Assembly (NCBI RefSeq): GCF_003967175.1
Contig: NZ_AP018553.1
Span: 1,178,001 to 1,242,000 of the forward strand
Direction: 5' to 3'
Source of the DNA: Sulfodiicoccus acidiphilus
Lineage (GTDB): Archaea > Thermoproteota > Thermoprotei_A > Sulfolobales > Sulfolobaceae
DNA length: 64,000 nucleotides
The position numbers and the translations under genes were made by a program. Positions 5,199 to 59,084 of this stretch are shown piece by piece. The notes below the pieces were generated by a model that had not been told where the DNA came from, did not search any database, and saw only the letters and a list, made by a program, of their open reading frames with translations. The stretch's first letter is position 1; each line of letters begins with the position of its first letter.

Positions 5199-6860
5199 TT
5201 GACGGATAAGTACGACGTAATCGTAGTTGGTGCAGGGGTAGGAGGATCAGCAGCTGCCCTCTACCTCGCCAAGAAAGGGTACGATGTGATGTTACTTGAG
5301 AAGGGGATGGTGCCTGGGCAGAAGAACCTCACTGGGGGCGTTCTTTACGGCTCGTTCGTCGAGGGATACGGGCTCATTGATCTAGTCCCTGAGTTCGAGA
5401 AGGAGGCGCCCCTAGAAAGAAGGGTCATCGATTACAGGCTCGTCCTTCTCTCTTCTCCGGTGAAGTCAGGTGGTAAATTCCAGTATAAGTACCTGGACAG
5501 TAAGGACGTTCCACTACTTCACTCTATGGCACATAGGCTGAAGGGAACCGGACACGATTACACAGTACATAGAGCTAGGTTCGATAAATGGCTGGCTTCC
5601 AAAGTCGAACAGGCTGGAGGCCTCGTGGTCACGGGGACTGCTGTGGAAGATCTACTATGGAGAGACGGTAAAGTCGTTGGGGTGAGGACAACAAAGGAGG
5701 ATGTAGAGGCTGACGTCGTCATAGATGCCAGTGGTGTCACTAGTAAGTTGGTAATCAAGGCCGGGCTCAGGGAGCCACTCTCACCCGAGGACGTCTACCA
5801 CGGAGTCAAGTTCGTGTTTGAGTTAGGCGAATCAGAAATAGAGTCTAGGTTCGGCCTAGCGAAGGGAGAAGGGATTGCCATGGCAGTGATGGGAGACTTC
5901 CTTCACGGCATGAAGGGTGGGGGTTTCCTTTACACCGATAAGTCTACCATTTCCTTCGGTATCGCGGTAGATGCCGTATCTATGCTGAAGAGCTTGAGGG
6001 ACAACGTCCCGATCCTCGGGAAGCCAGTTGATGTAGTCGACGAAATGGCCTCCCACCCTTACTTTTCCAAGTATTTAGAAGGAGCGAAGTTAGTGGAGTA
6101 TGGAGCTCACAACATACCTAAGGGGTACAGGACCTTCTTGGAGAGGCCTTTCATTCCAGGATTTATGGTGGTAGGCGACGCGCTAGGGGCCTTCGTGAAA
6201 CTTGGGGCCGTCATTGATGGAATGAGGAGGGCTATAGCGTCTGGAATAATGGCGGCAGTCACTTACGAACAAGCGCGTAAGAGAGGTGAGTTCTCCCAGT
6301 CCCTATCGCTCTACAAGGAATTATTGAAACCCTTAGAGGCTGATATATCTCGGTACAGGGCTGAGACCCTAGTATCTGAGAGCGACTTCCTCTACGGAAG
6401 AGGTTACACTTCGCTCCTTCAATCAGCAGGCAAAGTGGGATACGCCGACATCATCAAGGAGCCCCCAACAGTAGATTCACAGCAGAGAATCCAGTCCCTT
6501 ACTGCTACCCTTTCTTACAACGAGGATAAGGAGTGGGCACACATAAACGTAAGTGAAAGGGCTGATGAGGACCAAATGAAGATGTGGATACCTGCATGTC
6601 CGGCCAACTGTTATACCCTCCTAGTAGAGGGGAAGGGGGTCTTCGCCTCTTTTAGGGATCTATACAAGGTAAACCTATCCAAGGTGAGGGATCCGGGAGA
6701 AGCCGCGAAACTCACTTGGTCTGACGTAAGACAAGGAAAGGTGCGGTTCGACTATGTGCCATGTGTCGCCTGCGGAACTTGTTGGGTCATAGGTCCCAAG
6801 GACGTGATAGACTTCAACCCAGAGAGACAGGGCCACGGCGTCAAGTACTCCTACGGTTAA
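5199..6860 (+). CDS. fixCX: FixC-FixX fusion: ETF:quinone oxidoreductase with ferredoxin-like tail
   Basis: 553 residues. Residues 1-430 are FixC: FAD motif VVGAGVGGSAAALYLAKK near residue 9 and FMVVGDALG around 325. Residues about 450-553 are a fused FixX domain with C467 (CPANC) and the cluster CVACGTC (C522, C525, C528) ending HGVKYSYG, as in free-standing FixX. C471 is an additional cysteine not usual in FixX. It accepts electrons from EtfAB and reduces the quinone pool at the membrane. TTG start 1 nt after the preceding stop, with a GGAGG ribosome-binding site. A bifurcating role is possible for FixABCX-type systems but cannot be shown here. Confidence 0.93.
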   Translation: MTDKYDVIVVGAGVGGSAAALYLAKKGYDVMLLEKGMVPGQKNLTGGVLYGSFVEGYGLIDLVPEFEKEAPLERRVIDYRLVLLSSPVKSGGKFQYKYLDSKDVPLLHSMAHRLKGTGHDYTVHRARFDKWLASKVEQAGGLVVTGTAVEDLLWRDGKVVGVRTTKEDVEADVVIDASGVTSKLVIKAGLREPLSPEDVYHGVKFVFELGESEIESRFGLAKGEGIAMAVMGDFLHGMKGGGFLYTDKSTISFGIAVDAVSMLKSLRDNVPILGKPVDVVDEMASHPYFSKYLEGAKLVEYGAHNIPKGYRTFLERPFIPGFMVVGDALGAFVKLGAVIDGMRRAIASGIMAAVTYEQARKRGEFSQSLSLYKELLKPLEADISRYRAETLVSESDFLYGRGYTSLLQSAGKVGYADIIKEPPTVDSQQRIQSLTATLSYNEDKEWAHINVSERADEDQMKMWIPACPANCYTLLVEGKGVFASFRDLYKVNLSKVRDPGEAAKLTWSDVRQGKVRFDYVPCVACGTCWVIGPKDVIDFNPERQGHGVKYSYG

Positions 6861-7883: not shown

Positions 7884-8175
7884 CCGACTTCTTCCCCATC
7901 CTAAAGGTTTCCCCTCAAAGGGTTAGTAGTTCTCACAGTCGATTCTAAACTAAGCCTCTCTTTCGATCGGGGCAGTCGAGTGATTCGGAGGTCCCATTCG
8001 AAATTAATGAAGGGACCTTCCTTTTCGGCTCTGGTTCCGTCGAAAGGTGCCACTATAGTTGCTCCTGCTTAGTCCTATTGGGTCCTAGGTCGAGCCGGGA
8101 GGAGCTCGGTTAGCATGGTTGAGAAATTGCCTAACGATGTTATTATTACCGTTGCCCTGAAGGGCGAGGCGTTTT
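7884..8175 (-). mobile_element. Miniature tnpB-derived element, minus-strand copy
   Basis: Read on the minus strand, it begins with the left-end hairpin GCCTCGCCCTTCAGGGC and ends with GGGGAAGAAGTCGG, the right end shared with four other copies in the window. Internal blocks (CTAAC..GAGCTCCTCC, GGAGCAAC, CACTCGACTGCCC) align in order with the copies at 8237-8550 and 58481-58817. No open reading frame survives. It stands head-to-head with the next copy, 61 bp away. Confidence 0.6.
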
Positions 8176-8236
8176 TATCTGCCAAGGCAACATGACACAT
8201 TGGAGATTTGAGATCGCGTGTATTTTACACAGAGAA

Positions 8237-8550
8237 GGGGTTGAGGGGGTGGAAAGCCTCGCCTTTCACTGGGGTGTAGCCCCCTCATATTCAAGCACTT
8301 CTTTGTCGGGATACATTGTGACCCTAACGACGCTCCTCTCCCCAGCTCGATCGAGGACTTAACGAAAATGAGGGAGGAGCAGCCAATATCTCCCTTGAGG
8401 GACCGGACTTCACGGAAGAAAGTCCCACCTTCGAGTGGGTTCCCCCCGATCCACTCCACTGCCCACCAAACGAGGCGTGTCAACCCGAACCGGTGGTGGG
8501 AACGACGAGCCCCCTGGGAGGGTTCCCTCCCAGGGTGGGGAAGAAGTCAG
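8237..8550 (+). mobile_element. Miniature tnpB-derived element, plus-strand copy
   Basis: 314 bp from GGGGTTGAGGGGGTGGAAAG plus left hairpin to the right end GGGGAAGAAGTCAG. It shares a conserved order of blocks with 58481-58817. One is CGACGCTCCTC then CCCAGCTCGATCGAGG, which in one frame reads SSIEDLT, like the RuvC-II region of TnpB. The right part contains CCACC/GGTGG and CCCTGGGAGGG-type hairpins, the region that in IS605-family elements is transcribed as the 3' part of omegaRNA. I regard it as an internally deleted tnpB element. Short ORFs inside it are not real genes. Confidence 0.6.
8463..8550 (+). ncRNA. Candidate omegaRNA 3' scaffold/right end of a tnpB-derived element
   Basis: Right-end block aligning with those at 26262-26330, 28279-28346 and 58710-58817. 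It is GC-rich with two potential hairpins and a common terminus at GTCAG. By analogy with TnpB systems the bases just beyond 8550 would act as guide. No transcription evidence. Confidence 0.35.
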
Positions 8551-9221
8551 CATTTCGTTATAAACTACCTTGGTCAACCCCCATCAATTTTCTAGCAATT
8601 GACAGCAACCTCTATACCCTAGATGCTTATGACGGCGAGAAGTTCGTCACGTTCTCCATCAAAGAGTTGTATACTCTGAAGTACGGAGTGCAGTTGAGGA
8701 GGAGTGAAATACAGTCATTTGCATCTAAGCACGGTAAAAAAGGGAAGGAGTTGATGAGGAAGTATTCCCACGGCGAAAGGAACCGTGTAATTGATTACGT
8801 CTACAAGTTCGTGAATCAATTGCTGAAGATGTATCCCTTGATAACATTCGTTATAGAGAAGTTAAATAAACAAGGGATGTTTAATGACGCTAACGATAAA
8901 TTCTCTAAGAAGATTTCTAGGACTGTCTAGAGGAGTATTCACAGCATACTTAAATACAAGGCTCCCCTTTATGGTTACTTCGTAAAAGAGGTGAACTCGC
9001 ACCTCACATCTAAGTCCTGCCCCAGGTGTGGACGTGTTTCCCGAAAGGTCGGCGGGACCTTCACGTCTGAGAGATGCGGGTTCACCCTAGATAGGCAGTT
9101 GAACGCGTCCCTAAACATTTTCCTCAAGGTGTGCGGGTTTCCCCACGTCCGCGACATTCCACGGGTGTGGGTCGGGGTCACCCCGCTAAGGGGCGGAGGG
9201 TGTGAACGAGTTCCCTCGTGA
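8551..9221 (+). pseudogene. tnpB: TnpB (IS605/IS1341-type OrfB) pseudogene, N terminus missing, one in-frame amber
   Basis: The frame reads RuvC-I (FLAIDSNLYTLD), RuvC-II (FVIEKLNK) and then TAG at 8928-8930. After the stop the same frame continues perfectly through RSIHSILKYKAPLYGYFVKE, a zinc ribbon (CPRCG, then SERCG in place of the usual second CxxC) and RuvC-III (DRQLNASLNI), ending at TGA 9219. The stop most simply replaces a conserved TGG (Trp). The catalytic Asp, Glu and Asp are all still present. About 170-190 N-terminal residues are missing, the frame being cut by the right end of the miniature element at 8550. Confidence 0.8.
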
Positions 9222-9290
9222 CCCCGGTGAAGCCCAAGGGCTGAGGATTGATATGAAATATTATGAAATCCTATGAAGCCCAAACCCCAA
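9160..9290 (+). repeat. Right end of the second tnpB family
   Basis: Directly after the zinc ribbon and over the tnpB stop lie GGTCACCCCGCTAAGGGGCGG, then GTGAAGCCCAAGGGCTGAGG and a second GAAGCCCAAACC. The last two blocks recur at 44660-44695, which marks this as the right end/omegaRNA region of that family, distinct from the GTCAG family. Confidence 0.5.
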
Positions 9291-25348: not shown

Positions 25349-26290
25349 TTGATGGTCAGGAGAAGTAAACCCCCAACCAGAGCGACAGTTTCGATGAAGG
25401 TTCCCCTCTCTCATCCTTTACTAGCCTTGGTTGAGAAGTACGTGAGAGCTCTGCGATTCGTCCTGTACTGGTTGAAAGAGAACGTCGCAAACCCAAATGA
25501 GGAGGACGTTTTAACGAGAGTGCACAGCGAGATATACCACAAACAGAAGGGGGGAGTTCGACCCACTTCGAAAGTTCCTCAAGACTGTTATCGTGACGCC
25601 TACTATCCTCACTATCATCTTATCGAAATCATTACTGCAGCTCAACCTAGGAGTTAGCCACACACTCGATCTGTATACCCTTGGGAAACGACCTCTGTTA
25701 GGGTTGTTGAACCAGCTCTTTTGGATATGGCGTCGACGACAAGAACTACGTGGGGAACCCAAATCACCTGAACAGAGTTTATCAGAGGAAGTCCTTAGCT
25801 GAAAAACTCCAGAGGAAGTACACAAAGAGGTGTTAAGGAAAACGAGAGGATCCTTTCGAGGATTAAGGAGTTTCCACTCAAAAGCTAGGAGAATCCTAGA
25901 GGACTTCCCAAGGAAAGTTGGTGAGTGGGTAGTCGACATTGTCAAATTATACAAAGGCGTTAGGCTGGAGGACTTGAAGAACTTGGCCAAACACGTAGAT
26001 AAGTTGTCTAAAGAGTTTAGTACTCTACCAGATGGAGTACATAAGTACCCATTGCTGGTTCGCGTGGCAAGCTAAGAAGCACGGTCTCCTTGTTGAATTC
26101 GTGAACCCTAAGTACTCCTCAACCTCTTGTCCAAAATGTGGTTCAAAAATGGCCGAGATAAGCGGCCGCAGGTTCAAGTGTCCCTCACGTGGTTGGCAGA
26201 ACGACTTTGACGTAATCGCAATCGCGAATTTGAATGGGAGGAGATCTCTGATCCTCTCGACCGCCCCTCAGAGATGTAACCCCGAATCGG
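25349..26290 (+). pseudogene. tnpB: tnpB of element A1 with internal inversion and frameshifts
   Basis: Plus-strand pieces in order: N terminus to [11 protein letters not shown] (to 25600), then [19 protein letters not shown] (25750-25820), [20 protein letters not shown], RuvC-II LEDLKNL, zinc ribbon CPKCG...CPSRGW (second CxxC damaged) and [11 protein letters not shown]. Between 25601 and 25728 the coding sequence lies on the minus strand ([22 protein letters not shown]). It is flanked by GACGCC at 25595-25600 and GGCGTC at 25729-25734, a perfect 6-bp inverted repeat. About 70 residues before the GNPNHL block are also missing. Not functional. Confidence 0.8.
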
Positions 26291-26330
26291 TGGGGGGAAC
26301 CCTCGCCATTCGTGGCGGGGAGGAAGTCAG
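26262..26330 (+). ncRNA. Candidate omegaRNA scaffold, right end of element A1
   Basis: The block CGCCCCTCAGAGATGTAACC, CCGAATCGGTGGGG and CCTCGCC..GGCGGGG ending GTCAG is nearly identical to 28279-28346. It overlaps the end of tnpB, the place where TnpB guide RNA scaffolds are encoded. Transcription is not shown. Confidence 0.4.
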
Positions 26331-27168: not shown

Positions 27169-27319
27169 GGAAAATATCTTGAAACCTCATTTAAATTACC
27201 AATAGCAGATGCGAGACCCCTCAGTCCCTCATTCCCTTAAGGTCGAGGAAAAGTCGGTGAATTCTTCCATTGAGTTACAAAGGATCAAAAGCCTCGCCCT
27301 TCAGGGCGGGAATGTCAAT

Positions 27320-28275
27320 TTAAACGTCCTCTTCGTTCCAAACCCCTCGATGTCTTGGAGGGCTAAAGGATCGGAGTTGCGATCTCGACGGAGGTCCCCC
27401 GCGAACTACTACGTTCAAGCGATGGGTTCCACCCCCTTTTGCTTGAAGGAGAACTTCCCAGATCCGGAAGGGTGTGAAGGGTGAAATACGCGGGGAGCTG
27501 CACACCGCGTCGATGTAGGATTTCGACCTACCTTCTAAGGTGGCCGAGGACCGTTGTATGGACGCGCCCTCGTTGTGCGATCCGCACGACCCTATGGTCG
27601 CTTCCCCAGCAAGCGTAAACGGCGCGGTCGACGCAGAGAGCCGAAACCCGGATTCGGAGAGGACAACCTTCAGGATCGCTGGAGCCGGCGACCTCCAAAC
27701 CTCGTGCCCGAGGAACTCGAGGCGGGAGAGGAGGTAGGCCGGCAGTCGAGGACGGGAAGCGATGGGGGAAGGTGACCCGAGTCGGGCGTCGCCGTAGACG
27801 CGGCCGAAGTCGTCGGTACGACACCCTACACGTTCACCCACCTCCGCGACGCTCGCAGTCGGAAGTAGTTGCTAGGGGGTCGCGAGGGAAGTACACCACC
27901 TGAACGAACGGATCCTCCGCGGAATTCCACGGGAAGAGATCGCAAAGACGGTCGGCAAAGGGGAAGCCGGCCGTCGAGGACGGTGCAAACGTCCAGCTGG
28001 TGGACCTCAGGAACACGATCGGAAACGCGAACGAACTCTCAAGACAGTTTCGCGATGAGTTGCATTTAACGTAGTACCTTCCTTCGTAGCACCGAACCGA
28101 GTGGCGGGCGAGGTGTTTTCGTACAGTACGTCGGTCCCAGGTGCTCTCCAGTCCCTTGCCCTAAGTGCGGACAGGAAACGACCGAAGTCGGTCATCGTCG
28201 GTTTGAGTGCACTCGCGGTCGCGAGGACGACCGCGACGTCGCAATCCCGAACCTGAACAGGAGGGGTCCTCCCAT
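27320..28275 (+). pseudogene. tnpB: tnpB of element A2, heavily decayed
   Basis: Recognisable plus-strand pieces are GANVQLVDLRNTIGNANEL (RuvC-II region with Glu changed, about 27982-28038) and PCPKCGQETTEVGHRRFECT then DRDVAIPNLNRR (zinc ribbon and RuvC-III, about 28150-28265). They align with element A1 in the same order. Stops and frameshifts are frequent. ORFs on either strand in this stretch are artefacts of high GC. Confidence 0.65.
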
Positions 28276-28278
28276 CCC

Positions 28279-28346
28279 TCGACCGCCCCTCAGAGATGTA
28301 ACCCCGAATCGGTGGGGAGAACCCTTCAGGGTGGCGAGTAAGTCGG
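28279..28346 (+). ncRNA. Candidate omegaRNA scaffold, right end of element A2
   Basis: Nearly identical over its first 40 bases to the right end of A1, then a shorter hairpin (ACCCTTCAGGGTGG) and terminus AAGTCGG. The right end is much better preserved than the tnpB coding region beside it. Confidence 0.38.
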
Positions 28347-29455: not shown

Positions 29456-29492
29456 TTTTTCCTTAAGTGATGAGAAGAAAAATGTACAACGA

Positions 29493-29533
29493 TGCCGCGG
29501 CCGGGATTTGAACCCGGGTCAGAGGCTTGACAG
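29493..29533 (-). repeat. Duplicated tRNA-Asp 3' end, attachment site
   Basis: GCCGCGGCCGGGATTTGAAC and the following bases repeat the 3' end and T-arm of tRNA-Asp at 34351-34391, with two mismatches in about 39 nt. About 25 bp of the flank on the int side (AAAGAAAAA-type) is also similar at both sites. Marks the junction of an integrated element. Confidence 0.8.
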
Positions 29534-29775
29534 GATATGCTTAGTTTAATTTAACGTCAATCAAATTACGTTACTCGTTACATCTTGAGGTACTATAATG
29601 CTATGAGCATAGTTAAATTATACTACAAAGACAAGTGTACTTTCACTACGCGTTAAGCTCATTCGATACTGTAGTGTTGATACAATATACCCTGAACTTC
29701 TTAGATCCAGGAATTTTCTGCCAGTTACTTTGTCTTGAAAAATTCAGTAGTAGTATGTGTTAGGAGTTTTTCACC

Positions 29776-31209: not shown

Positions 31210-32269
31210 TATTCTCTTCGATGGAAGGCCTAAGGAAACCAAGGAAGAGTTGTATGATAGAGACGAGGAACTTAACCAGTTGCGTTCGACTGTGTCAGAG
31301 CCCATAGTTCTCCTAACTGGTATCAGGAGAATAGGTAAGACCTCTATTCTAAAGGCTTTCCTAAACGACACCAGTTTACCTCACGCCCTTGTGGACGCTA
31401 GAATCCCGCTATCCTCTTATAGGGCAATCTACACGATGTTTTCGGAGGTACTATCCCAGTTAAACAAGAGATTACCCATCAAATCTGTCTTACAGCACTT
31501 TAGGGGAATTTCAATCTTCGGAGTTAACGTATCCCTGTCCTGGGATCCCAGGGAAAGGGTTTTATTAACTCAAGTATTGGACAGAATAAACGACGAAGGC
31601 AAGGTGATCATAGCCTTCGACGAGGCCCAAAACCTAAGAGGTAAGTTGGGCCACGAGATGCTCTCCATTTTAGCCCACTGTTACGATTACTGCAAAAACG
31701 TGACCTTCATTCTAACGGGCTCGGAGATAGGACTACTGTACGACTTTCTAAAGGTTGAGGATCCATCCTCTCCCCTATACGGGAGGCATTTAGAGGAGGT
31801 GAGAGTGAACAGATTTGATTCATTCCGATCCATAGATTTCCTAGAGAGGGGCTTTGAACAGGCCGGGATGACACCCACGAAAGACGTCCTGGAGCACGCG
31901 GTGGAGGAACTTGACGGAGTTGTGGGGTGGTTGACGGAGTTCGGGCTCAGGTGTTTGAGGGCCAAGGAAGTCAAGAAGTCATTTGTGGACGATGTCCTGG
32001 AACTCGCAATGAGAACAACGGTTGAGGAATTGAGTCATTTCTCCAGGGAATACGTCACAATAGTTGAGGCCATAGCGAAGGGGCATGGGAGGTGGAGCGA
32101 GATAAAGAGGTACTTCGAAGACAAGAGGAGGAGGACCATATACGACGCGGAACTTGGGAGATATTTAAATAACCTGGAGGGGCGGGGATACGTCGTCAAG
32201 AGCGGTAGGGGAAACTACCAGTTGGCCGACCCAGTGATAGGGAGAGCTTTCAATTTCCTTAGAAGATGA
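31202..32269 (+). CDS. Archaeal ATPase (AAA/STAND-like, PF01637 type)
   Basis: 355 residues. Walker A TGIRRIGKTS (39-48), Walker B VIIAFDEAQN (135-144), sensor-like FILTGSEIGL and a C-terminal winged-helix region (about 280-350, KRYFEDKRRRTIYDAELGRYL...LEGRGYVVKSGRGNYQLADP). This is a lineage-expanded archaeal family often found on mobile elements, with unknown targets. GTG start overlaps the second palindrome and fits a leaderless mRNA. It is the only clearly intact protein gene in the integrated element. Confidence 0.82.
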   Translation: MLVILFDGRPKETKEELYDRDEELNQLRSTVSEPIVLLTGIRRIGKTSILKAFLNDTSLPHALVDARIPLSSYRAIYTMFSEVLSQLNKRLPIKSVLQHFRGISIFGVNVSLSWDPRERVLLTQVLDRINDEGKVIIAFDEAQNLRGKLGHEMLSILAHCYDYCKNVTFILTGSEIGLLYDFLKVEDPSSPLYGRHLEEVRVNRFDSFRSIDFLERGFEQAGMTPTKDVLEHAVEELDGVVGWLTEFGLRCLRAKEVKKSFVDDVLELAMRTTVEELSHFSREYVTIVEAIAKGHGRWSEIKRYFEDKRRRTIYDAELGRYLNNLEGRGYVVKSGRGNYQLADPVIGRAFNFLRR

Positions 32270-34257: not shown

Positions 34258-34350
34258 TTACGACACCTATATGCGTTGCACTCTTCTCCATCGGACGCTA
34301 CATTCCCATCAATTTCTTCGGAGATCAGTGAAAAGAAAAACGTAAAATAG

Positions 34351-34440
34351 CGCCGCGGCCGGGATTTGAACCCGGGTCAGGGGCTCGACAGGCCCCCATC
34401 CTCTCGGCGAAGGCTCTAGACCGGGCTAGACTACCGCGGC
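34351..34440 (-). tRNA. tRNA-Asp(GTC) with a 15-nt D-arm insertion
   Basis: Minus strand. Acceptor GCCGCGG/CCGCGGC, discriminator G, T arm CCCGGGTTCAAATCCCGG, anticodon stem GGGGC/GCCCC with loop CTGTCGA, giving GUC. Total 90 nt. Taking out 15 nt (AGAGCCTTCGCCGAG, or that window shifted by two because AG repeats) between GGTCT and AGGAT restores a normal D arm and a 75-nt tRNA. No CCA encoded. Its 3' end serves as integration site (see copy at 29493). Confidence 0.85.
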
Positions 34441-43990: not shown

Positions 43991-44093
<103 letters not shown>

Positions 44094-44299
44094 ACGCAAG
44101 AACACATGTGGCTTCGAGCTAGTAATAAGGTTAACCGTCAAAGAAAACGGGGATTGAGGGTGGCTTACTCTCACAACTATACCTGGAGCTTTCTCTTATT
44201 AGGAGATAGAGGAGCGGAAGATCCCGTCAGCGAGAATGGACGGCACCTCATTTAAAATCAACCTGAAGAAACTCATTCACGAAAGTCGTAGACAGGCTG

Positions 44300-48873: not shown

Positions 48874-48988
48874 CTTGGAGCTCGTGGAGGATCCCTCGAA
48901 TAGCCCTATTCATAGGGAGCTCAAAAGCGTTGGGACATCATGTGAAGGAGAAGACAGGGTTAAATACGGGAAGTCAGTGTGAATAGAT

Positions 48989-49490
<502 letters not shown>

Positions 49491-58345: not shown

Positions 58346-58480
58346 TTTCGTTGCTTTGTAACTTTACGGCCCGAGCGAAGCTACTGCCACTGGCGTTCAA
58401 GATAGCTGAGTATAACATCCTTTGGGGTTGAGGGAACGGATGGCCCCCTTATAGGAACACTTTCCTAAGTTACAAAAATT

Positions 58481-58817
58481 GGGGTTGAGGGGGCGGAAAG
58501 CCTCGCCTTTCACGGCGGGGACGGATAGCCCCCTTGTATTTATACTTCTTTGTTAAAATTTCTCTTAGTGGTACTAACGACGCTCCTCCCCAGCTCGATC
58601 GAGGGCTTAACGGGACTGTGGGAGGAGCAACCATCGTCTCTCTTCTCTCTTAAGGGACTAGAGCTTTGCGATGAAAGTCCCCTCCTCTTCAAATGGGAGT
58701 GGACCTCTGATCCACTCGACTGCCCACCAAACGAGGGATGTAAACCCGAACCGATGGTGGGAACGACGATCCCTTTGGGAGGGAACCATCGCCCTTCCAG
58801 GGCGGTGAGAAAGTCAG
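58481..58817 (+). mobile_element. Miniature tnpB-derived element, plus strand
   Basis: 337 bp from GGGGTTGAGGGGGCGGAAAG and hairpin GCCTCGCC..GGCGGGG to terminus GAGAAAGTCAG. Collinear with 8237-8550 over most of its length. A partial second left end (GGGGTTGAGGGAACGGATGG) lies at 58426-58445. The ORF across it is not a gene. Confidence 0.62.
58710..58817 (+). ncRNA. Candidate omegaRNA scaffold of the 58-kb miniature element
   Basis: CCACCAAACGAGGGATGTAA through CGATGGTGGG can form a CCACC/GGTGG stem, followed by CCCTTTGGGAGGG and CCCTTCCAGGGC hairpins and the GTCAG end. Conserved with the copy at 8463-8550. Expression unknown. Confidence 0.35.
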
Positions 58818-59084
58818 TTGAAAACAATATTTCAGACCTAGGCCGTAGGAGTCGGATCGTACCATCGGGACTGGGGGAACCAGGTGGAAGGTGAACCTCG
58901 CAACCTCTCTTCCATAGAAGGTGTCGAAGGATTGTTACACCGGACCTCCGCTACAAGCGAAGGGGGATCGAGATTGTCCATAGAAGCAGGCTTCGTCGCG
59001 AGTTGAGGACACCAGGGCCGTGAAGGCGTGGTAGTTCGCGGTCACTTGAAAACGTTTTTTAGATGGGCCGGGAGCTTAAGTAGT
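58818..59084. other. Spacer downstream of the miniature element
   Basis: No gene supported. A T-rich TATA candidate (CGTTTTTTAGA near 59057) precedes the metallophosphoesterase ATG. Confidence 0.3.

What the first reader, a model, noticed from the sequence alone, without database searches (positions are those of the whole stretch)
8463..8550. Conserved omegaRNA-like right ends in five elements with unrelated downstream bases
Right ends at 7884(-), 8550, 26330, 28346 and 58817 all finish at (G)AAGTC(A/G)G and share hairpin-forming blocks, after which homology stops abruptly. In TnpB systems this is exactly where the scaffold ends and the guide begins. Most copies lack an intact tnpB, and the right ends are better preserved than the coding regions, so some may be stand-alone guide RNAs used by a TnpB encoded elsewhere.
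Basis: partly seen in the sequence, partly recalled or inferred. Interest (0 to 1): 0.7.

Follow-up and report, generated by a model that had tools for sequence, protein, structure and literature searches.

The report
Stand-alone guide-RNA elements borrowing one TnpB
This archaeon carries about 35 copies of a tiny gene-free jumping element, each of which looks like a complete guide-RNA gene (promoter, folded scaffold, and a different address taken from the neighbouring DNA) that could steer a single TnpB DNA-cutting enzyme encoded elsewhere in the genome; the RNA fold is clearly under selection, but no RNA or cutting has been measured.

Summary
In 35 aligned genome copies, information drops from 2 bits to under 0.2 bit right after ...TCAG. 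8229-8550 and 58474-58817 are two of about 35 tnpB-free IS200/IS605 elements ("PATEs", 322-348 nt), each starting after TTAC. 26330 and 28346 end decayed tnpB elements; 7884(-) is a decayed relic. Each full element is the LE and promoter of a tnpB element, a ~110-nt RNA domain in place of the tnpB gene, and the tnpB 3' end (omegaRNA scaffold). Homologues in at least eight other Sulfolobaceae genomes keep the internal helices by compensatory changes (94.8% of cells paired, 13 pairs changed on both sides, 0/500 shuffles). The genome has one intact TnpB of this family, whose element also starts at TTAC and ends AAGTCAG. Empty sites show the putative guide is the sequence that stood 3' of TTAC before insertion. 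Best reading: stand-alone omegaRNA genes used in trans by TnpB, probably moved by a Y1 TnpA. Transcription, trans use and cleavage are inferred. Caveat: the own TnpB's scaffold lacks one 20-nt hairpin of the PATE scaffold. PATEs and omegaRNAs are known; this is a new variant.

The parts
8225..8228 (+). TTAC: left target motif / expected TAM of copy 1
   Evidence: fixed as TTAC in 34/35 copies
8229..8550 (+). tnpB-free IS200/IS605 element (PATE), copy 1, a slightly diverged member
   Evidence: boundaries by alignment of 35 copies
8429..8550 (+). omegaRNA-like scaffold / right end of copy 1
   Evidence: model R1, 88.1 bits, E 1.2e-21
8551..8570 (+). putative guide of copy 1 (unique flank)
   Evidence: no shared sequence among copies after 8550
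58470..58473 (+). TTAC left motif of copy 2
58474..58817 (+). PATE copy 2, intact typical member
   Evidence: 95-96% identical to other genomic copies
58539..58544 (+). TATA-box-like TTTATA, homologous to the tnpB promoter region of the tnpB-bearing elements
   Evidence: TTTAWA in 29/34 homologues; leader 80-95% identical to tnpB elements
58582..58628 (+). 5' RNA domain, helix H3 (GCTCCTCCC/GGGAGGAGC)
   Evidence: 98% of cells paired, conservation 0.904
58656..58682 (+). 5' RNA domain, helix H5 (GGGAC/GTCCC)
   Evidence: 4 of 5 pairs with a change on both sides
58693..58817 (+). omegaRNA-like scaffold of copy 2 (helices H6, H7, H8, terminal hairpin)
   Evidence: model R1, 151.2 bits; Rfam HgcC 29.3 bits E 6.3e-5, sub-threshold
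58818..58837 (+). putative guide of copy 2
   Evidence: unique flank; no second TTAC-guide target in the genome
25267..26330 (+). decayed tnpB element (left motif CTAC), scaffold 26234-26330 without helix H8
27279..28346 (+). decayed tnpB element (left motif TTAC 27275-27278), scaffold 28257-28346
7884..8003 (-). decayed right end of a PATE-like relic; LE hairpin remnant near 8157-8187
   Evidence: model R1 32.4 bits, most helices broken
   Evidence: model R1 20.8 bits, E 5.3e-4
8580..9250 (+). fragment of a tnpB of a different group (relative of L038), next to copy 1; not the partner
   Evidence: PF07282 match 8937-9119; right end of another type

Best explanation
The right ends at 8550 and 58817 are the 3' ends of about 345-nt non-autonomous IS200/IS605 elements (PATEs) that work as stand-alone omegaRNA genes. 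A promoter inherited from tnpB drives an RNA made of a 5' structured domain (in place of the tnpB reading frame), the TnpB scaffold ending ...AAGTCAG, and a guide read from the flank. The one intact TnpB of the family (genome 1030134-1031285, minus strand) would bind these RNAs in trans and cut TTAC+guide, i.e. the site that reappears when an element is excised or that is empty on a sister chromosome, so that repair copies the element back (peel-and-paste, cut-and-copy retention). A Y1 TnpA, probably the intact one of the ISC1733-like element, would move them through the LE and RE hairpins. Shown: boundaries, TTAC, target-derived guides, conserved covarying fold, intact TnpB. Inferred: transcription, trans loading, cleavage, retention.
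For: About 35 full copies, TTAC-start / TCAG-end, 35 distinct flanks. Homologues in eight or more other family genomes, 75-84% identical over the whole element. Helices outside the Y1-bound hairpins: 94.8% of cells paired, 13 of 34 pairs with double-sided changes against 5.4 in shuffles (0/500), slid controls 43-50% paired. H3 (0.904) and H7 (0.922) are conserved better than the LE hairpin (0.851), linkers 0.69-0.71; G.U outnumbers A.C 46:20 on this strand. Fold z-score -4.0. H6 and H7 covary between PATE and tnpB right ends. LE+leader 80-95% identical to tnpB elements, middle without homology to them. Intact TnpB: D185, E275, D356 and four Zn cysteines invariant among 12 relatives; dN/dS about 0.1; its element starts at TTAC and ends AAGTCAG. 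Joined flanks restore reading frames without gap or duplication. Rfam HgcC matches the own tnpB end at 41.6 bits, E 1.6e-6, below its gathering score. In the family, full PATEs and intact TnpB co-occur (8 both, 2+2, 19 neither; Fisher p 2e-4), uncorrected for phylogeny and with hand-set cut-offs.
Against: No RNA data. The only intact TnpB here has a scaffold without the 20-nt H8 hairpin that the PATEs carry; H8+ scaffolds sit on intact TnpBs of other genomes (G004, G030, G028). H8+ and H8- tnpBs are interspersed on the tree, but deep nodes are weakly supported. Full PATEs also occur in G012 and G020, where the best listed relatives have stops. The top strand is also the strand that Y1 elements move as ssDNA, so the pairing could in principle serve DNA folding.
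Confidence: 0.68

Rival explanations
1. Ordinary PATEs/MITEs: the right ends are conserved only because the Y1 transposase TnpA needs the hairpins; the scaffold is a passive leftover of the tnpB 3' end and makes no functional RNA.
For: The elements fit the PATE definition (PMC3119063): no ITR, near-terminal palindromes, no target duplication, too short for a transposase. Recent multiplication explains the near-identity within one genome. Y1 elements need only LE and RE. Non-autonomous SMN1 (320 bp) in Sulfolobus is moved in trans by the ISC1733 transposase (PMC3718332).
Against: Across genera the most conserved and most strictly paired parts are internal (H3, H7), not the ends, and they covary. 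The tnpB-like promoter region is kept. The middle domain is not tnpB-derived yet is conserved across genera.
Confidence: 0.2
2. The RNA is real but works in another way: for example as a decoy that soaks up TnpB (or shields the element), or as a regulatory RNA of its own using the 5' domain.
For: The 5' domain (H3, H5) is specific to the tnpB-free elements and has no known homologue in Rfam or in tnpB elements. A scaffold with an extra hairpin could bind without activating.
Against: Intact H8+ TnpB elements exist whose own scaffold has the same hairpin, so H8 itself is not an inhibitory mark. The guide boundary and TTAC logic are preserved in nearly every copy.
Confidence: 0.1
3. Conservation reflects folding of single-stranded DNA during transposition rather than RNA.
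For: IS200/IS605 elements move as top-strand ssDNA, the same strand as the proposed RNA; G.T also pairs in DNA.
Against: The known Y1 mechanism does not use internal structure; TATA box and leader would not need to be kept.
Confidence: 0.05

Closest known systems
PATEs (palindrome-associated transposable elements) of Haloquadratum, PMC3119063
   Same: Gene-free IS605-type elements without ITRs or target duplication, near-terminal palindromes; some derived from tnpB elements by core loss; attacked by other mobile elements
   Different: There described as transposase-free repeats, some being only fused ends; here a promoter, a conserved 5' RNA domain and a full covarying scaffold are kept across genera
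SMN1, 320-bp non-autonomous element of Sulfolobus islandicus mobilised by ISC1733 transposase (PMC3718332)
   Same: Similar size, same order, gene-free, moved in trans by an IS200/IS605 transposase
   Different: Sequence relation not tested (SMN1 sequence not at hand); no omegaRNA is proposed for it in the text read
TnpB-omegaRNA systems, incl. Sulfolobus SisTnpB1 (PMC10640517) and ISDra2 (PMC8612924)
   Same: RE scaffold with terminal hairpins, guide from the flank, TAM equal to the left-end cleavage motif, RuvC D/E/D
   Different: In those systems the omegaRNA is encoded by the tnpB element itself; here TTAC instead of TTTAA/TTTAT, and guides outnumber intact nucleases of the family about 35:1
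Trans-encoded (stand-alone) omegaRNAs of IscB systems and PATE omegaRNAs in Geobacillus (from memory: Altae-Tran 2021; Meers 2023; not readable here)
   Same: Guide RNAs without a nuclease gene next to them
   Different: Not compared in sequence; I cannot say whether they have a dedicated 5' domain
Rfam HgcC (RF00062) and sot0042 (RF02656, an omegaRNA per PMC12558985)
   Same: HgcC spans scaffold and start of flank with the same ...GGGGAGGAGGUCAG end
   Different: Match is below the gathering score; I found no curated link of HgcC to TnpB

Membership tests
IS200/IS605 (Y1) transposable element, PATE subtype | No terminal inverted repeats, subterminal palindromes at both ends | tested here: met
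   LE and RE hairpins in all full copies
IS200/IS605 (Y1) transposable element, PATE subtype | Insertion 3' of a fixed tetranucleotide, no target duplication | tested here: met
   TTAC 34/35; ungapped empty-site alignments for L021 and L066, frame restored in L010
IS200/IS605 (Y1) transposable element, PATE subtype | No transposase or tnpB gene | tested here: met
   No tnpB homology inside copies
IS200/IS605 (Y1) transposable element, PATE subtype | A Y1 TnpA available in trans | tested here: met
   One intact Y1_Tnp ORF (136-138 aa with HVH and Tyr) at 430993-431346; that it moves these elements is inferred
TnpB omegaRNA | Scaffold homologous to the 3' end of a tnpB element of the same family | tested here: met
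TnpB omegaRNA | Conserved secondary structure with compensatory changes | tested here: met
TnpB omegaRNA | Guide begins at the transposon edge; TAM equals the left-end motif | tested here: inconclusive
   Edge and TTAC shown for PATE and tnpB elements; RNA 3' end and TAM use not measurable here
TnpB omegaRNA | Binds TnpB and directs cleavage | not testable with these tools
   needs biochemistry
TnpB (partner protein P0001) | RuvC D/E/D and TNB zinc ribbon, full length | tested here: met
   PF07282 E 1.8e-16; PF01385 26.1 bits, under its cut-off of 30.5; D185/E275/D356 and 4 Cys invariant; PDB TnpB match E 2e-6
Rfam HgcC | Score at or above gathering (50 bits) | tested here: not met
   29.3 bits for the PATE, 41.6 for the own tnpB end

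The most novel reading that the evidence does not exclude
A dedicated, tnpB-free guide-RNA gene family, with the tnpB promoter, a new 5' RNA domain in place of the nuclease gene and a scaffold carrying an extra hairpin, has multiplied to about 35 guides that all draw on one resident TnpB, so that one nuclease enforces retention of dozens of dispersed, gene-free elements; the 5' domain would be a new functional part of an omegaRNA (stability, loading or regulation).
Probability: 0.4. Interest if true: 0.75.

Novelty: new variant of a known kind. Interest (0 to 1): 0.6.

Why it matters
If right, gene-free IS605 elements are not dead remnants but a multi-guide system that exploits a single TnpB, an archaeal parallel to a CRISPR-like many-guides/one-nuclease arrangement produced by transposition alone. 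It would explain how such short elements persist at high copy number when their transposase loses them on excision, and it gives a clear test bed (35 natural guides, one nuclease). The conserved 5' domain is a ready candidate for a stabilising or regulatory module in a compact RNA-guided nuclease.

Tried and rejected
Rfam scan of the window: only two tRNAs at gathering level. Self-targeting: the 35 TTAC+guide sequences have no second full match in the genome; the nearest are three tnpB paralogues that match the L066 guide with one mismatch, but next to TTCGC rather than TTTAC. The tnpB fragment next to copy 1 (8580-9250) is of another group with another right end, so it is not the partner. The ISC1733-like TnpB next to the intact TnpA has a different scaffold. 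Papers by Meers 2023, Altae-Tran 2021 and Berkner & Lipps 2007 are not held. A mixed alignment of tnpB and PATE right ends (A2) was dropped because the H8 insertion was misplaced; helix counts for that comparison were made on gap-free rows instead (the H7 register was off by one and corrected). In one search helix H5 was first placed at a wrong occurrence and corrected. In one search the G012 row was cut at the wrong motif and is ignored.

Full report
What is there. The window lies at 1178001-1242000 of a single-contig genome of 2,353,189 bp (the size fits Sulfodiicoccus acidiphilus from memory, unverified). A BLAST search with the 8550 right end found 40 places in that genome. Aligning them shows a hard edge after ...AAGTCAG and a left edge after TTAC. 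In 35 copies the last five element bases carry 2.0 bits each and the twenty bases after the edge 0.01-0.19 bit; TTAC is fixed in 34/35, with TTGC in one. The elements are 322-348 nt long and hold no tnpB. The two copies in the window are 8229-8550 and 58474-58817.

A covariance model of the last ~125 nt recovers all five at the stated end points. 26330 and 28346 end elements of about 1.07 kb that still hold a degenerate tnpB. 7884(-) is a relic with most pairs broken. The model finds 117 such ends in the genome, in a gradient from about 34 intact to heavily decayed.

The partner. A protein search finds one intact TnpB of the family in the genome and some 28 broken pieces. The protein has PF07282 (above cut-off) and a PF01385 match below its cut-off, and the RuvC D185/E275/D356 and zinc cysteines are invariant among 12 relatives. 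dN/dS against genes from other genera is about 0.1. Its element starts TTAC|AAAG, like the PATEs, and ends in the same ...GGGGAGGAAGTCAG. One intact Y1 transposase is present, in an ISC1733-like element.

Anatomy of the element. The first 90-97 nt are 80-95% identical to LE plus tnpB leader of tnpB-bearing elements, including a TATA-like box (TTTAWA in 29/34). The last ~130 nt are homologous to their right end. Between them lie about 110 nt with no clear homology to tnpB elements, found in this genome at places that coincide with PATE right ends (spot-checked against the list). So the tnpB gene has been replaced by another structured stretch.

Evidence for a selected RNA. Homologues in eight or more other genomes of the family are 75-84% identical over the full length. 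On 34 non-redundant sequences, helices outside the transposase-bound hairpins are paired in 94.8% of cells, with 13 of 34 pairs changed on both sides (shuffled mean 5.4, 0 of 500 reach it; slid controls 43-50% paired). Examples: H6 A-U to G-C in 7 sequences and U-A to G-C in 8; H7 A-U to C-G and C-G to U-A. H7 differs between tnpB ends (CCCCTC/GAGGGG) and PATE ends (CCCACC/GGTGGG) with pairing kept, although only the former lies at a coding end. H3 and H7 are the best conserved parts, better than the LE hairpin. The window copy folds with z = -4.0. Related sequences inflate such counts, but the slid controls keep relatedness and fall far below. Within the genome, diversity is not lowest in H3 or H5, so the constraint is read from the cross-genus comparison, not from recent copies.

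What the guide is. Joining the flanks restores an amidohydrolase frame (L010; PF04909 across the junction, E 3e-16) and a tnpB frame (L066). For L021 an uninterrupted paralogue at window 31907-32204 aligns across the junction with no gap; intact relatives of the L010 and L066 sites align across the junctions too. A PATE in a MAG contig (L220) interrupts what reads as an ABC-ATPase motif (my reading of the sequence). Hence the bases after the right end are those that stood 3' of TTAC before insertion: TAM plus target in the TnpB scheme. No second full TTAC+guide target was found in the genome.

Mechanism and limits. The simplest account is a stand-alone omegaRNA gene used in trans. Shown: boundaries, motif, guide origin, fold, intact nuclease. 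Inferred: transcription, loading, cutting, retention. The weak link is the H8 hairpin: the PATEs have it, the own TnpB's scaffold does not. H8+ and H8- scaffolds occur on about 80%-identical TnpBs that mix on the tree (weak deep support), so cross-use is plausible, not proven. Presence of full PATEs and intact TnpB is associated over 31 family genomes (p 2e-4) but with hand-set cut-offs and no correction for phylogeny, and two genomes (G012, G020) break the rule.

Comparison. PATEs (PMC3119063), SMN1 (PMC3718332) and omegaRNAs of Sulfolobus TnpB (PMC10640517) are known; stand-alone omegaRNAs have been described for other systems as far as I recall. What I have not found described, within the papers I could search, is a gene-free family with tnpB promoter, a covarying 5' RNA domain and dozens of guides per nuclease. 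I rate it a new variant of a known kind.

Noticed in passing
L138-L143, L121, L123, L124, L230, L232, L240, L242 (relatives G015, G020, G024, G028, G030): An IS110-family element (DEDD transposase, judged by eye from its ORF) is inserted at the same spot...GGGGAG|CTTCCGGTATAAAAACC, in many PATE and tnpB right ends, between the scaffold hairpin and the guide; IS110 elements choose targets with a bridge RNA, so one RNA-guided element seems to disable another's guide RNA.
   Followed up: partly
L159:1448-1558(-), window 58733-58830: Rfam HgcC (RF00062) matches the own tnpB right end at 41.6 bits (E 1.6e-6) and the PATE at 29.3 bits, with the same GGUCAG end followed by flank: HgcC is probably a TnpB omegaRNA family.
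   Followed up: partly
L189 (OP999031.1, STSV4) 175-529; L221 (IMG/VR contig) about 5893-6207: Copies of the element on viral sequences, so it travels between hosts.
   Followed up: no
L066 and tnpB paralogues L038, L039, L040: The PATE in L066 sits in a tnpB of another group, and its guide nearly matches three paralogous tnpB genes that have TTCGC instead of TTTAC at the motif.
   Followed up: partly
29471-29534 and 34329-34392: 64-nt direct repeat (86%) containing what looks like a tRNA 3' part; could be attachment sites of an integrated element between them.
   Followed up: no
43993-44094 and 48988-49089: Two nearly identical tRNA genes in inverted orientation 4.9 kb apart.
   Followed up: no
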